DNA of 64,000 bases from contig NZ_JAVFVR010000004.1 of NCBI RefSeq assembly GCF_030929595.1, positions 1 through 64,000 on the forward strand. Direction: 5' to 3'. This document shows positions 49,103 to 54,962 of the stretch, piece by piece (position 1 is the stretch's first letter; the number at the start of each line of letters is the position of its first letter). Source of the DNA: Flavobacterium sp. LHD-85. GTDB lineage: Bacteria; Bacteroidota; Bacteroidia; Flavobacteriales; Flavobacteriaceae. The notes beneath the pieces are model-generated. The model was not told where the DNA came from and did not search any database. It worked only from the letters and a program-made list of their open reading frames with translations. The translations under genes were made by a program, and so were the position numbers.

Positions 49103-49245
49103 AGAAGCTAATCCAGCTGTACATTCCAACTCCTCCTTATATTTGTAATTTTTTAAGGCATAAAAGGAGCTTCCGTTGGTCGCTCTTTTACACCAAAAAA
49201 ATGCAACAAATATAAGTCCGGGGTTTCCATTTCCATCTGGGCTAA
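49103..49245 (-). ncRNA. Candidate structured intergenic RNA element (family member 2)
   Basis: This element fills almost all of the channel-miaA gap. On the minus strand it begins AGCCCAGATGGAAATG and ends AATGTACAGCTGGATTAGC. The arms ACTTATATTTGT and ACAAATATAAG (49206-49216 with 49136-49146) form an 11-bp helix closing a loop with a further hairpin, GAGCGACC-AACGG-AAGCTC. Ends and layout match the 13077-13158 element. On the plus strand it would be the 5' UTR of miaA. Function is unknown. Confidence 0.45.
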
Positions 49246-49250
49246 AAAAT

Positions 49251-51096: not shown

Positions 51097-51128
51097 AAAA
51101 AAAGATGCAAATTGCATCTTTTTTTTTA
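51097..51128. terminator. Bidirectional terminator of the thioesterase gene and the rtcB-prfH operon
   Basis: AAGATGCAA and TTGCATCTT pair with almost no loop, flanked by an A-run and a nine-T run. It closes the minus-strand repair operon and the convergent thioesterase gene. Confidence 0.85.
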
Positions 51129-51134
51129 CGAAAA

Positions 51135-51668
51135 TCATTTCGATTTCTTTTTAGAACCTTTCTTAGACTTCGTCTCTTTTTCCTTTTTTAGCAAATCCAT
51201 TTTACCTTTAATTCTTTTCTCAACTTCACTAATTCCTGAATCATAGTCATGTTGAATAGAATATAATTTTGCTTGCTTAATTTCTTTTAAAGCCTCTCTA
51301 AATTTATGCTGCACTTCTAACAAAATTGCTTTCTTAATATAAATCTCCGATTTATTGATTCCTTTCACTGTCAAAGCAAAATCAATTAATTTCTGTGCTT
51401 CTTCATAATCTTCGTTTAAAATCAACGTTTTTAAATAATACGGATATACTTCAAGAGCATGAATATTAATCGCTAAAGCTTGCTGAAAATAAGATTTCGC
51501 TTCTTCATAATTCATTAATTGCTCTGCCTGAATTCTTCCGTACAAACACAACACCATCGTGTTTTTATCATCATAAGAAAAAGCATAATCTAAAGATTCA
51601 ATTGTTCCTTCCAACCAAAACGGATAATTATCCAAGGCTTGAAAAAGGTATTTATCAGTTGTTTTCAT
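51135..51668 (-). CDS. TPR-repeat protein in the rtcB-prfH operon
   Basis: The 177-residue cytoplasmic protein has about three tetratricopeptide units: [20 protein letters not shown] read with its neighbours, [20 protein letters not shown] and [21 protein letters not shown] basic coiled tail follows ([19 protein letters not shown]). The start overlaps prfH by 14 bases, so it is translated from the same mRNA. TPRs imply a protein-binding adaptor, and the Lys-rich tail suggests RNA or ribosome contact. Both are inference. Confidence 0.8.
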
Positions 51669-52344
51669 TTCTTAGGTCATTTTTTAATTTCTGACGAGTT
51701 TCTTTGTAGCTTTTCTCTACTTTATTCTTTTTAAAATCACTTCCAGTAAAAACTCTCACCAGATTTCCGCGCTCCACATTAAGCTGATTTTCCCATTGTT
51801 TCCCTACGTGATTTTTAAGCTGAAGCAATTTCTCGTCTTCAAGTTTTTTAATTAATCTTTCTGTTGCCAATTTCTTGTTTTGGTGCTGAGAACGGCTGTC
51901 CATCGCGACAACGGCAATTCCTGTTGGAATATGAGTTGCTCGAATAGCAGAACTAACTTTATTCACATGCTGCCCTCCTGCTCCCGAGCTTCGCATTGCC
52001 TGGTATTGAATATCGTTTTCAGAAAACGAGTTATTTCTCTGCTGTTCGATTTCAAAGATTCCAATAAACCAGTTTTTACGTTTGTGCATTTTCCTAAACT
52101 GACTCTGACCAATCCATTGAACCGTTCCTATCCAAGAATTCACAAATTGATCTGCATTTTTTCCTTTTATAGCGATCGATGCTGTTTCCACAGTTCCATT
52201 TTCAGTTCCCGCTTCTCTTTGCAGTAAAACTGTTTCCAGTTGGTGTTCTTGTGCTTCTTCCAAAACTTTTTTAAGCACTTGGGCAACAACCCAAGTGCAT
52301 TCTGCAGGTCCGCGACCCGCTGTTATCTGAATTATTCTTTCCAT
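51655..52344 (-). CDS. prfH: Peptide chain release factor homologue PrfH
   Basis: PrfH is a release-factor paralogue that hydrolyses peptidyl-tRNA on ribosomes with a damaged decoding centre, according to published work on the RtcB-PrfH pair. The 229-residue protein lacks the N-terminal domain of RF1/RF2. It has the catalytic [20 protein letters not shown] (GGQ at 123-125), preceded by a shortened region that replaces the stop-codon recognition part. It lies 12 bases after rtcB and overlaps the TPR gene. Confidence 0.93.
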
Positions 52345-52356
52345 TTCAAATCTTTT

Positions 52357-53748
52357 TTAGCGGTCCATTCTAACAATCTTTGGCGTAAATGTTCCCAAAA
52401 CTTCAACCAAATCGGTTTGGTTTGCCATTACTTTTTTAATGTCTTTGTATGCCATTGGAGCCTCGTCAATATTACCGCCAATTAAAGTCACAGCATGTTT
52501 CTTCAATTCTTTGTTAATCTGACTTTGTGTAAAACTGCTTTTACATTTCGCTCTCGAAAATAAACGTCCAGCACCATGCGAGGCTGAGTTTAAACTGTCC
52601 GCATTTCCTTTTCCTTTCACAATAAAACCTGGCGCTGTCATCGAACCTGGAATAATTCCCAATTGCCCTTCACCTGCAGGTGTTGCTCCTTTTCTATGCA
52701 CTATACATTCCTGACCGTTTACAGTTTCTTTCCAAGCAAAATTGTGATGGTTTTCTATAGTTACCACTACTCTTTTCCCAATCGCTTTGCCAATTCTTCG
52801 ATGAATATCATCGTGACAAGCTTTGGCATATTCTCCTGCTAAATTCATTGCCAACCAGTATTCTTGGCCATCGTGCGTATTTAAATCCAGCCAAGCCAAA
52901 TGCTGCACATTTTTCGGTAACGGACATTGTTTTGTTGCCAAATAAGTATAATGCTTCGCAATATTTGCGCCCAATCCGCGGGAACCGCTATGCGAGAGAA
53001 CAGCAAAATATTCTCCTTTTTCTAATTTCCATTCGTTTTCTGGATTATCAATTTTAGCTATTCCAAATTCTACAAAATGATTTCCTCCGCCCGAGCTTCC
53101 CAATTGCTTATACGCCTTTGGCAAAAGATTCTTTAACAACGGAATATCCTGAAATTCGCTCTTATGAAAAACTTCATGATCCACTCTTGACGATTGTACT
53201 TCGTTCATTCCGAACTTGGTATTATCTCTTAAAATCGCTTCCAATTGATGTTCTCTTCCCTTGAAATGAGAAGCTGGCAAATCAAAAATAGAAAGACTCA
53301 TTCTGCAACCAATATCAACACCAACACCATAAGGAATAACCGCATTATCAGTCGCCAGCACTCCTCCAATTGGTAATCCGTATCCCGAATGCGCATCTGG
53401 CATTAAAGCTCCCGCAACTGAAATTGGTAGTTTTAACGAATCATACAATTGAAATTTTGCTTGCTCATCGATTTCATTTTCTCCAAAAATTTTAAAAGGC
53501 GCTCTAGTATTTTTAAGCTGATGCATTCTTATCTGGACTGGCTTAATTAAACCTTCGGCAACTTTTCCCCAAGTTCCGTTTCCTTCATATTTTTCAGGAT
53601 TTAAAAGCACATCTTTTGCTTCTGTTAGAATAGATTCCTTTTTTTCTCTTTTTCTATATCTATTTATCTGCCCTAAGGCAATGTTTATTGAATTGTTCTT
53701 TGGAAAACCTAATTTAATCAGGTCTTTTCCAGATAATTTATTTCCCAT
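52357..53748 (-). CDS. rtcB: RNA ligase RtcB (PrfH-associated)
   Basis: RtcB joins RNA 2',3'-cyclic phosphate or 3'-phosphate ends to 5'-OH ends using GTP and Mn. The 463-residue protein keeps the metal and guanylylation residues: VGVDIGCRMSL, SSGGGNHFVEFG, LSHSGSRGLGANIAKHY, IENHHNFAW and the GMP-accepting His in SHGAGRLFSRAKC. It overlaps the upstream unknown gene by 11 bases and is followed by prfH. That pairing points to repair of cleaved 16S rRNA. No archease or RtcA gene is adjacent. Confidence 0.95.
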   Translation of the reverse strand: MGNKLSGKDLIKLGFPKNNSINIALGQINRYRKREKKESILTEAKDVLLNPEKYEGNGTWGKVAEGLIKPVQIRMHQLKNTRAPFKIFGENEIDEQAKFQLYDSLKLPISVAGALMPDAHSGYGLPIGGVLATDNAVIPYGVGVDIGCRMSLSIFDLPASHFKGREHQLEAILRDNTKFGMNEVQSSRVDHEVFHKSEFQDIPLLKNLLPKAYKQLGSSGGGNHFVEFGIAKIDNPENEWKLEKGEYFAVLSHSGSRGLGANIAKHYTYLATKQCPLPKNVQHLAWLDLNTHDGQEYWLAMNLAGEYAKACHDDIHRRIGKAIGKRVVVTIENHHNFAWKETVNGQECIVHRKGATPAGEGQLGIIPGSMTAPGFIVKGKGNADSLNSASHGAGRLFSRAKCKSSFTQSQINKELKKHAVTLIGGNIDEAPMAYKDIKKVMANQTDLVEVLGTFTPKIVRMDR

Positions 53749-54532
53749 GATTTTCTATCATTTCATCTGCGTATTGTTGATACAAAGTGTGCAGACTTTT
53801 ATTTTTAATTGGACTTATCTCTTTTGGATTTTCTTTTTCGTAATAACTCCATTTACGAGAACTGCCGTGTATTAATCTGTTTGTTTTTTCTCTAAGATTA
53901 CAATTAACAATATAATTGTCAATAAGTTGAATTTCGCTTTCTAAATCTGAATCAACCATTTTTGTATGTGTTATCATATATGGGCTCACGCGAAGCACAT
54001 ATCTCCAAGGCTCGTTAAATACATAATGAATTTTGTATCGTTTGCAATTGCTGCACCAACGTTCCCTTTTATAAAAATGTGCTTTTTCTTTTTCGGTCAA
54101 TTCTAATTTTGAACTTCTCCATTCCCATTCTGAAAACTCTTTTACAGTTTGGATTTTTTCAACATAAACATGTTTTCTCTTTCTTTTTTTCTTTCTCTTA
54201 AAAGATTTTTCAGGAGAAAATTGCCATGTGTTTATTTTTTCCAATAATTCTCTGTAAAATGGGGCTTCACTTGATCTGGTAACATCATCTCTTAATTTAA
54301 AATTGCGCTGCCAGCCTTTTTGGTAAGGAATTTCTAAAGGAACTAATGGTAAGTTTCTTCTTTTTTTCCAAAGTTCAACTTCAAGCTTTCTTAACTGAAT
54401 TAATTGTTTTTCAAAATCTTCTTTTACTACTCTTTTCTTTCTTCTTTTACTTTTAAAACGAGCACATAAAGCATACTCGTCTACCGTATAATTTTCCATA
54501 AAAAAATTATCGTGCATTAAATTAACAGCCAT
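53738..54532 (-). CDS. Unknown basic protein, first gene of the rtcB-prfH operon
   Basis: The 264-residue protein (ATG at 54532; alternatives at 54517 and 54499) is unusually rich in Lys, Arg, Trp and Tyr. Basic blocks are FKSKRRKKRVV (about 25-40) and FKRKKKRKRKHVYVEK (about 110-130). A central WCSNCKRYKIHYVFNEPWRY contains a CxxC that might bind zinc. No known domain was recognised. Its stop overlaps the rtcB start by 11 bases, so it is translationally coupled. An RNA- or ribosome-binding role in the repair system is inference from charge and context. Confidence 0.75.
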   Translation of the reverse strand: MAVNLMHDNFFMENYTVDEYALCARFKSKRRKKRVVKEDFEKQLIQLRKLEVELWKKRRNLPLVPLEIPYQKGWQRNFKLRDDVTRSSEAPFYRELLEKINTWQFSPEKSFKRKKKRKRKHVYVEKIQTVKEFSEWEWRSSKLELTEKEKAHFYKRERWCSNCKRYKIHYVFNEPWRYVLRVSPYMITHTKMVDSDLESEIQLIDNYIVNCNLREKTNRLIHGSSRKWSYYEKENPKEISPIKNKSLHTLYQQYADEMIENHGK

Positions 54533-54544
54533 GAAGGCCAAACT

Positions 54545-54564
54545 ATTTATCCTGACGGATAAAT
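54545..54564. promoter_or_regulatory. 20-bp inverted repeat before the rtcB-prfH operon
   Basis: ATTTATCC-TGAC-GGATAAAT has perfect 8-bp arms and ends about 12 bases upstream of the first start codon. It could be a repressor operator or an mRNA hairpin that controls access to the start. No good TAnnTTTG box was found nearby. Confidence 0.45.
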
Positions 54565-54606
54565 TCTAAAAATCGATTTTCGGGAAAATTTTGAAGAGTC
54601 TAGAAT

Positions 54607-54645
54607 AAAAAAAAGCCCGAAACTTATTGTCTTCGGGCTTTTTTA
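54607..54645 (-). terminator. Terminator after the 54.7-kb micro-ORF
   Basis: AAAAGCCCGAA and TTCGGGCTTTT form an 11-bp stem around ACTTATTGTC, followed by T-runs on both strands. It separates the micro-ORF transcript from the rtcB operon. Confidence 0.85.
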
Positions 54646-54664: not shown

Positions 54665-54748
54665 CTAAGATTGAAATAAGCCACGAAGAATTGCTTCACC
54701 AAATACATTTGGTGTAAAGCTCTGAGATGTCAATGTAAGTACAAACAT
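54665..54748 (-). CDS. 27-residue micro-ORF or small RNA (putative)
   Basis: The frame starts at ATG 54748 and encodes MFVLTLTSQSFTPNVF then GEAILRGLFQS. A purine-rich GAAGAAAAA precedes the start, and a near-consensus box (AATATTTG) lies upstream around 54800. An internal hairpin, CACCAAAT-GT-ATTTGGTG (54697-54714), and the terminator at 54607 give it the outline of a discrete short transcript. Whether the product is a peptide or an RNA cannot be decided. The rest of the 470-base gap is AT-rich with the response-regulator terminator. Confidence 0.45.
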   Translation of the reverse strand: MFVLTLTSQSFTPNVFGEAILRGLFQS

Positions 54749-54962
54749 TTTTTCTTCGTTTTTAAAGGGTTATTATTTTTTTCGTGTGCAAATATTCATA
54801 ATACTTTTTTGATTTTCCAAATTTATTTAAAGAAAATTCTTCAAAATAAATTTCAACAATACTTTCTATACTTCCAAGAAGAATACTATTGCTCTAAAAA
54901 TCAATAAATTAAAACAAAATTTATATTATAAAAATAAGCCAAAATATTCTAGCTTTATACAC

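What the first reader, a model, noticed from the sequence alone, without database searches (positions are those of the whole stretch)
51135..54532. Four-gene overlapping operon: unknown basic protein, RtcB, PrfH, TPR protein
Seen: four minus-strand genes with an 11-base overlap, a 12-base gap and a 14-base overlap, closed by one terminator (51097-51128). RtcB and PrfH catalytic motifs are intact. Known: RtcB-PrfH pairs are reported to repair or rescue ribosomes whose 16S rRNA is cut in the decoding centre. Inference: the two extra genes are additional parts of this ribosome-repair unit in flavobacteria, perhaps for recognition of damaged 30S subunits (basic protein) and assembly (TPR).
Basis: partly seen in the sequence, partly recalled or inferred. 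Interest (0 to 1): 0.8.

Follow-up and report, generated by a model that had tools for sequence, protein, structure and literature searches.

The report
Ribosome-sensing switch on ribosome-repair operon

Summary
The four-gene operon is real. RtcB and PrfH are confirmed by family models; the downstream gene is only TPR-like (below every Pfam cut-off); the upstream basic protein (conserved start 54499, 253 aa) matches no family, and no clear solved fold was found. Both extra genes track the operon: in 80 GTDB loci of the basic protein RtcB lies directly downstream in 73, PrfH in 68, TPR-like in 55. The basic protein follows RtcB rather than PrfH (five loci keep basic-RtcB without PrfH).

What seems new lies upstream: a leader with a 25-28-codon reading frame and an intrinsic terminator before the first gene. 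CTTCG-T-GGC in the frame is complementary to a segment before its start codon and to the terminator's 5' arm. In 150 genus genomes it stands before 44 of 44 operons of this RtcB subgroup and at one other place. I read it as a transcription attenuator opened by impaired ribosomes, like PA5471.1 before armZ/prfH in Pseudomonas aeruginosa. Equilibrium folding favours the terminator, so switching must be kinetic. No expression data were seen.

The parts
54789..54821 (-). promoter-like site of Bacteroidetes type: TTTGG (54821-54817) and AATATTTG (54796-54789)
   Evidence: seen by eye in 27 diverse leaders; the strict TTG-N17-23-TAnnTTTG pattern was met in only 2 of 27 and not in the window; the consensus is recalled, not from a call
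54752..54759 (-). leader element 1, ACGAAGAA, shortly before the leader start codon; pairs with element 2 (P1)
   Evidence: the six core pairs hold in 89-92 of 92 distinct leaders; pair 8 is A-T in 67 and C-G in 12
54665..54748 (-). leader reading frame, 27 codons, MFVLTLTSQSFTPNVFGEAILRGLFQS, stop TAG
   Evidence: frame kept in 106 of 106 leaders found by pattern, 25-28 codons, stop ends 24 (104) or 21 (2) bases after CTTCG starts
54678..54690 (-). leader element 2, TTCTTCGTGGCTT (codons of the LRG motif); pairs with element 1 or element 3
54631..54640 (-). leader element 3, AAGCCCGAAG: 5' arm of the terminator, and antiterminator partner of element 2 (P2)
   Evidence: 97.4% of 270 cells paired in P2 against at most 59.3% when slid; its last G is G in 91 of 91 leaders scored against 3 of 88 other terminators of the same type
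54609..54644 (-). intrinsic terminator before the first gene (elements 3 and 4, then U-run)
54577..54584 (-). element 5, CCCGAAAA, complementary to the terminator's 3' arm (possible P4)
   Evidence: 6 or more Watson-Crick pairs of 8 in 85 of 92 leaders, 17 of 92 after shuffling
54545..54564 (-). short hairpin ATTTATCC-GTCA-GGATAAAT before the first gene
   Evidence: some perfect stem of 7 or more in this interval in 68 of 92 leaders, 1 of 92 after shuffling; at least 17 of the 68 are a different AT-only stem; role unknown
   Evidence: AF2 model pLDDT 86.5
52357..53748 (-). RtcB-type RNA ligase, 463 aa
   Evidence: PF01139
51655..52344 (-). PrfH (release factor H), 229 aa, GGQ motif
   Evidence: TIGR03072
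51135..51668 (-). TPR-like protein with lysine-rich tail, 177 aa
   Evidence: sub-threshold TPR hits; alignment A2
51097..51128 (-). operon-end terminator
   Evidence: folded

Best explanation
This is a flavobacterial RtcB-PrfH rRNA-repair and ribosome-rescue operon with two accessory proteins, and its expression is controlled by a leader-frame transcription attenuator. Proposed working: RNA polymerase starts just upstream and makes the leader. When ribosomes are healthy, one runs quickly to the leader's stop codon and covers element 2 (CTTCGTGGC); element 3 is then free to pair with element 4, the terminator forms and the operon stays off. When ribosomes are cut or slowed, one is held at the start or in the early codons; it covers element 1, so element 2 is free and pairs with element 3 (antiterminator), and polymerase reads on into the basic protein, RtcB, PrfH and TPR-like genes. 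RtcB then re-ligates the cut RNA, PrfH releases the nascent chain, and the basic protein most likely works with RtcB (RNA or ribosome contact). Shown by comparison: the leader parts, their conservation and their near one-to-one linkage to this operon. Inferred: that the frame is translated, that switching happens, the inducing signal, and the roles of the two accessory proteins.
For: Linkage: model R1 gives one strong hit in the own genome (173.9 bits, next 35.7) and, in 150 genus genomes, hits of at least 65.8 bits in 45, next best 45.8 (some of these sequences trained the model). Of the 45, 44 are the genomes with this RtcB subgroup (two of them, G296 and G302, lack PrfH), and the leader was seen upstream of the operon in each; the 45th, G349, has it before a lone TPR-like gene. 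The second RtcB of these genomes (about 52% identical) has no basic, PrfH or TPR neighbour in the 10 loci examined. Frame: kept in 106 of 106 leaders, 92 distinct, with in-frame length changes. Antiterminator: 7 of 10 pairs invariant, one pair C-G to T-A in five of 27 rows; L119 has GAC with GTC. Discriminating control: element 3's last G is not held by the terminator stem (partner T 80, A 8, G 2, C 1) and is rare in other terminators of the type (3 of 88), yet fixed in leaders, 91 of 91 scored. RNA cut before element 4: P2 forms in 92 of 92 with a ribosome at the start and in 0 of 92 with one at the stop. Precedent: PMC12057347 and PMC13041342 (passages): PA5471.1 leader, complete translation gives the terminator, stalling opens armZ (RtcB-like); prfH (PA5470) is adjacent.
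Against: With the whole leader folded to equilibrium the terminator wins in 89 of 92 even with a ribosome at the start, and in 80 of 92 when the sequence down to the first gene is added, so the switch must be kinetic. Cut RNA without any ribosome also prefers P2 (86 of 92), so the untranslated state is unclear. Covariation of P2 is modest: most pairs never vary, and the number of pairs with double changes (1) is reached by 411 of 500 shuffles; L099 and L100 break one pair (letters). For P1 plus terminator the covariation score (0.056) is no better than one slid version (0.058). Leader codons show weak amino-acid constraint (dN/dS about 0.6-0.7; entropy similar at the three codon positions), so translation rests on frame conservation alone. 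The leader was not detected upstream of the Pedobacter, Mucilaginibacter, Taibaiella or Chitinophaga basic-protein loci nor of the four PcfJ-RtcB-TPR loci tested. In P. aeruginosa the attenuation model is itself described as proposed. No transcript data were seen.
Confidence: 0.7

Rival explanations
1. One reading: a four-part ribosome-repair unit in which the basic protein finds damaged 30S subunits and the TPR-like protein assembles the complex; regulation is ordinary.
For: Strong linkage of both genes to RtcB-PrfH; basic proteins, pI 9.7 and 8.6; similar proposals in PMC6514570 section 2.4.
Against: Specific roles untested; the basic protein follows RtcB rather than PrfH (L156, L172, L173, L176, L187); the leader is as tightly linked to the operon as any gene in the genus sample.
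Confidence: 0.35
2. The leader is a small protein gene or small RNA in its own right that ends at an ordinary terminator; the operon is read from a separate promoter downstream.
For: Equilibrium folding favours the terminator in nearly all leaders; the leader has its own promoter-like site (by eye).
Against: 44 of 45 strong hits in 150 genomes stand before this operon; element 3's last G is explained by pairing with element 2 and not by the terminator; no conserved promoter seen between terminator and first gene (by eye in the 28 leaders printed, not tested); peptide sequence weakly constrained.
Confidence: 0.15
3. The attenuator senses an amino acid or a charged tRNA through particular codons, not ribosome damage in general.
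For: Classical leader attenuators work so (established knowledge); PMC9723704 reports leader-peptide clues before amino-acid operons in F. psychrophilum (passages).
Against: No run of one amino acid; 70 different peptides among 106 leaders, variable in codons 2-19; the downstream genes are not biosynthetic.
Confidence: 0.1

Closest known systems
RtcB2-PrfH operon of Escherichia coli ATCC 25922 (PMC9223846, passages; RFH operons in PMC1586002, passages)
   Same: rtcB immediately upstream of prfH, same strand, very close; both families confirmed here
   Different: in those passages the operon is two genes; here two accessory genes, an RtcB that misses the TIGR03073 cut-off (138.3 of 271.8 bits) and a leader attenuator
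RFH-RtcB neighbourhoods with TPR, Pol-beta NTase, zinc-ribbon and charged-helix genes (PMC6514570 section 2.4)
   Same: matching kinds are found in these loci: TPR-like, NTase-like (c23), zinc-ribbon-like (c17, weak Pfam hits), charged basic protein
   Different: that section mentions no leader or attenuator; that its fourth kind is this basic protein is my inference, as its supplement was not readable here
PA5471.1 leader before armZ (PA5471, RtcB-like), with PA5470/prfH adjacent, Pseudomonas aeruginosa (PMC12057347, PMC13041342, passages)
   Same: small leader frame, terminator before the first gene, alternative pairing, RtcB-like and PrfH genes downstream; proposed to open when ribosomes stall
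   Different: different phylum; its leader was not compared by sequence here; ArmZ is described as an anti-repressor of efflux; no accessory basic or TPR gene in the passages seen

Membership tests
RtcB RNA ligase | PF01139 over its gathering score and the ligase motifs | tested here: met
   281.6 bits against 27; GVDIGC, GGNHF, SHSGSRGLG, SHGAGR aligned with PDB 1uc2 (which residues are catalytic is recalled)
NCBIfam TIGR03073 release_rtcB (PrfH-associated RtcB) | score over 271.8 bits | tested here: not met
   138.3 bits; not filed under this model
PrfH (TIGR03072) | score over 166.65 bits and GGQ motif | tested here: met
   230.4 bits; GAGGQHVNK in the translation
RtcB-PrfH repair and rescue system | rtcB directly upstream of prfH on one strand | tested here: met
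   12-base gap
RtcB-PrfH repair and rescue system | re-ligates cleaved 16S rRNA and releases the nascent chain | not testable with these tools
   needs biochemistry
TPR protein | a TPR family over its gathering score | tested here: not met
   best TPR_2 24.3 bits, cut-off 27; called TPR-like only
leader-frame transcription attenuator | small frame followed by an intrinsic terminator before the first structural gene | tested here: met
leader-frame transcription attenuator | mutually exclusive antiterminator supported across relatives | tested here: met
   97.4% of cells paired, five double-change cells at one pair in 27 rows; G control; covariation modest, L099 and L100 break one pair
leader-frame transcription attenuator | ribosome position decides terminator against antiterminator | tested here: inconclusive
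   yes on RNA cut before element 4, no at equilibrium on the full leader
leader-frame transcription attenuator | translation of the leader and induction by impaired ribosomes | not testable with these tools
   needs reporters or ribosome profiling

The most novel reading that the evidence does not exclude
The leader is a direct sensor of ribosome damage: a 30S subunit cut in the decoding centre can start the leader but not finish it, and this failure opens the operon that mends that same cut, a closed repair loop. With PA5471.1, such loops would exist on RtcB-PrfH operons in two distant phyla, which would make damage-sensing attenuation a general partner of these systems.
Probability: 0.4. Interest if true: 0.82.

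Novelty: new variant of a known kind. Interest (0 to 1): 0.62.

Why it matters
What switches RtcB-PrfH repair on is, as far as I saw, open outside the P. aeruginosa case. A leader that reads ribosome performance would explain how a costly rescue system stays silent until ribosomes are attacked, and it can be tested with a simple reporter. The work also outlines a protein family (the basic protein) tied to the RNA ligase, with a confidently predicted fold for which no clear match was found among solved structures.

Tried and rejected
Phage or plasmid origin: no basic-protein match in 72,556 plasmid records; PrfH has matches in 51 of 50,697 phage records, 2 of them covering at least 80% of it, at most 39.6% identity in the six rows shown; dropped. 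Defence-system library: no match for the four proteins. PHROGs: RtcB and release-factor families, two sub-significant hits for the TPR-like protein, none for the basic protein. Basic-protein profile against PDB sequences: only translin at E 0.25-0.52 over about 36 residues; dropped. Foldseek, two models: nothing at E up to 0.001; VIA-align best Z 4.7, inconclusive. Rfam: only Flavo-1 passes its threshold in 48-58 kb; Thr, His and Trp leader hits are below theirs and lie on the terminator. Peptide-level selection on the leader: weak, so I do not claim a functional peptide. A strict perfect-stem search for terminators in 29 loci of other lineages found two, neither with a matching element 2. Equilibrium folding as proof of switching: failed. 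Dropped before counts: the weak basic-protein hit in G262 (E 7.7e-4, two stops); five fetched loci without a usable RtcB or basic gene (L103, L104, L107, L109, L202) from the 140 upstream regions; three partial RtcB hits (G257, G276, G279) not classed. The 88 background terminators come from held loci, some of close relatives, so they are not independent. Element 5 is conserved but its role is not shown.
Full report
WHAT IS THERE. The window lies in a 5.64-Mb Flavobacterium-like genome (one genus-sample contig, G319:C1, has the length and coordinates of the record of Flavobacterium sp. ACN2 behind L171). Four minus-strand genes overlap or nearly so: basic protein, RtcB, PrfH, TPR-like. The RtcB and PrfH identities rest on curated models. 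The RtcB does not reach NCBI's model for the PrfH-associated RtcB (TIGR03073: 138.3 of 271.8 bits) but carries the ligase motifs. The basic protein passes no Pfam, NCBIfam, PHROG or PADLOC family. The TPR-like protein is below every Pfam cut-off. dN/dS against ten relatives is 0.08-0.20, 0.02-0.04, 0.02-0.09 and 0.06-0.16 for the four genes in order.

LINKAGE OF THE EXTRA GENES. In 150 genomes of the genus, PrfH at E up to 1e-50 is in 42, counting G391, whose copy is broken. TPR-like is in 47: 39 of the 42, five beside a PcfJ-RtcB pair without PrfH, two strays (G349, G308) and one weak hit (G282). The basic protein is in 18; without the weak G262 hit, 17, all directly upstream of RtcB (two of them broken, L079 and L108), 16 with PrfH and one (G296) without PrfH or TPR. 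Against carriers of this RtcB (49 of 150 at 56% identity or more) the association is 17 of 49 against 0 of 101, Fisher p 6e-10 (not corrected for relatedness). Across GTDB, 85 loci were found and 80 kept: RtcB is directly downstream in 72, plus one (L128) in which basic protein and RtcB are one 724-aa frame, 73 of 80; PrfH in the locus in 68, TPR-like in 55. The seven without RtcB: L183 ends at the gene; L196 ends about 470 bases later; L194 has basic-PrfH; L197, L199, L200 and L202 are orphans or remnants. Many of the 80 are close relatives. In the phylum sample of 247 genomes, 17 have PrfH over its cut-off and 7 have a basic-protein match, all 7 among those 17; in one of them (G088, L119) two very divergent copies precede rtcB (20 and 19% identical to the window protein). 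The second RtcB of these genomes, about 52% identical, has no basic, PrfH or TPR neighbour in the 10 loci examined.

RELATION TO PRINT. PMC6514570 section 2.4, that section read in full, already lists accessory genes around RFH-RtcB: TPR, Pol-beta NTase, zinc-ribbon plus basic helix, and a second charged-helix protein, and suggests scaffolding and rRNA contact. Matching kinds occur in the loci here: NTase-like and zinc-ribbon-like genes sit between rtcB and prfH in some relatives (their Pfam hits are below cut-off) but not in the window.

THE BASIC PROTEIN. Nineteen homologues share 34 invariant columns. With 53 sequences AlphaFold2 gives mean pLDDT 86.5 and pTM 0.63 (with 19 sequences 79.7 and 0.49): a long N-terminal helix, several strands and C-terminal helices. 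Foldseek finds nothing at E up to 0.001; VIA-align best Z 4.7, so the fold is unmatched here but not proven new. It stays with RtcB where PrfH is absent (L156, L172, L173, L176, L187), so I take it for a partner of the ligase.

THE LEADER. Between the upstream response-regulator gene and the operon lies a conserved element. In the window: element 1 ACGAAGAA (54759-54752), ATG at 54748, a 27-codon frame to TAG at 54665, element 2 CTTCGTGGC (54688-54680) in its LRG codons, terminator arms element 3 AAGCCCGAAG (54640-54631) and element 4 GTTTCGGGC (54623-54615), then element 5 CCCGAAAA (54584-54577). Of 145 loci held for this (window included), 140 gave an upstream region. A profile, run at E up to 10, hits 110 of 140, some genomes being present twice; a pattern that does not look at the frame finds 106 of 140, 92 distinct; L099, L100, L119 and L120 were added by eye. 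The frame is kept in all 106, with 25, 26, 27 or 28 codons and 70 different peptides, and its stop ends 24 bases after CTTCG begins in 104 and 21 in 2. It occurs with or without the basic protein, in several genomic settings. Model R1: one strong hit in the own genome; 45 of 150 genus genomes at 65.8 bits or more, next 45.8. Of these 45, 44 are the genomes with this RtcB subgroup (the 49 carriers less the five PcfJ-RtcB genomes; G296 and G302 lack PrfH), and the other (G349) has the leader before a lone TPR-like gene. Some of these sequences trained the model.

EVIDENCE FOR A SWITCH. Element 2 can pair with element 1 (P1) or, with a one-base bulge, with element 3 (P2). P1 core pairs hold in 89-92 of 92 distinct leaders. 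P2 pairs hold in 97.4% of 270 cells, at most 59.3% when slid; seven pairs never vary, one shows C-G 20, T-A 5 and T-G 2. L119, outside that set, has GAC in element 2 with GTC in element 3, while L099 and L100 break one pair. Shuffling reaches the number of double-change pairs in 411 of 500, but the double-change cells and the covariation score in 1 of 500. For P1 plus terminator, cells paired are 90.1% against at most 60.8% slid, but the covariation score does not exceed a slid version (the alignment misplaces element 1 in some rows). The best control: the last G of element 3 is not kept by the terminator, since its terminator partner is T 80, A 8, G 2, C 1, and in 88 other terminators of the type CCCGAAN the base is A in 71 and G in 3; in leaders it is G in 91 of 91 scored, 1 not scored. 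It pairs with the first C of element 2. On RNA cut before element 4, P2 forms in 86 of 92 without a ribosome, 92 of 92 with a ribosome at the start, 58 of 92 at codon 11 and 0 of 92 at the stop. Against: on the full leader the terminator wins in 92, 89, 91 and 92 of 92 in the same four states, and in 86, 80, 85 and 92 with the downstream sequence added. Switching therefore needs the kinetic order of transcription, which I could not test. The peptide itself is weakly constrained (dN/dS about 0.6-0.7).

HOW IT MOST LIKELY WORKS. Healthy ribosomes finish the leader, sit at its stop, hide element 2 and let the terminator form. Impaired ribosomes stay near the start, free element 2, and the antiterminator lets polymerase pass. 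The same logic is proposed for PA5471.1 before armZ, an RtcB-like gene next to prfH, in P. aeruginosa: complete translation gives the terminator, stalling opens the gene, and codons 3 and 4 are involved in one such response (PMC13041342 and PMC12057347, passages; the review calls the attenuation model proposed). I did not compare the two leaders by sequence, so common descent or convergence is open. Searches for a flavobacterial RtcB or PrfH leader found none in the held library: (listings; passages of some); PMC9723704 (passages) mentions leader peptides before amino-acid operons and holds no rtcB or prfH.

VERDICT. Observation confirmed; interpretation partly supported and largely anticipated in print; the main new content is the attenuator. 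New variant of a known kind, interest 0.62.

Noticed in passing
window 49106-49247, minus strand: Flavo-1 RNA (RF01705), 42.6 bits, just over its gathering score of 42, between the ion-channel gene end and miaA.
   Followed up: no
L105, L106, L107, L123, L124 (about the middle of each locus): A related unit: PcfJ-like protein, RtcB (56-66% identical, one copy broken), TPR-like protein (32-38%), without PrfH; no strong leader hit in these five genomes.
   Followed up: partly
L128:5968-8142: Basic protein and RtcB form one 724-aa reading frame in Flavobacterium sp. DG2-3; natural fusion or a sequence error, one case only.
   Followed up: no
L119:10580-12704: Two very divergent basic-protein paralogues upstream of rtcB in another genus of the family, sharing the LxKPxRxGW and THxxxxD regions; hints at a larger fast-evolving family.
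   Followed up: partly
leader stop codon, window 54665-54667: The leader ends with TAG in 88 of 92 distinct leaders, while 76 of 721 ORFs of 180 aa or more in the first set of loci do; unexplained, could be RNA pairing, descent or a release-factor effect.
   Followed up: no
window 54545-54564: A second hairpin shortly before the first gene; in several relatives both stem sides differ (TTTATCC/GGATAAA, TTTATCT/AGATAAA, TTATTC/GAATAA); role unknown.
   Followed up: partly
L103 (G349 C55:62571-63469): Leader before a lone TPR-like gene, with no rtcB or prfH in the fetched 14-kb locus: a probable deletion remnant.
   Followed up: partly
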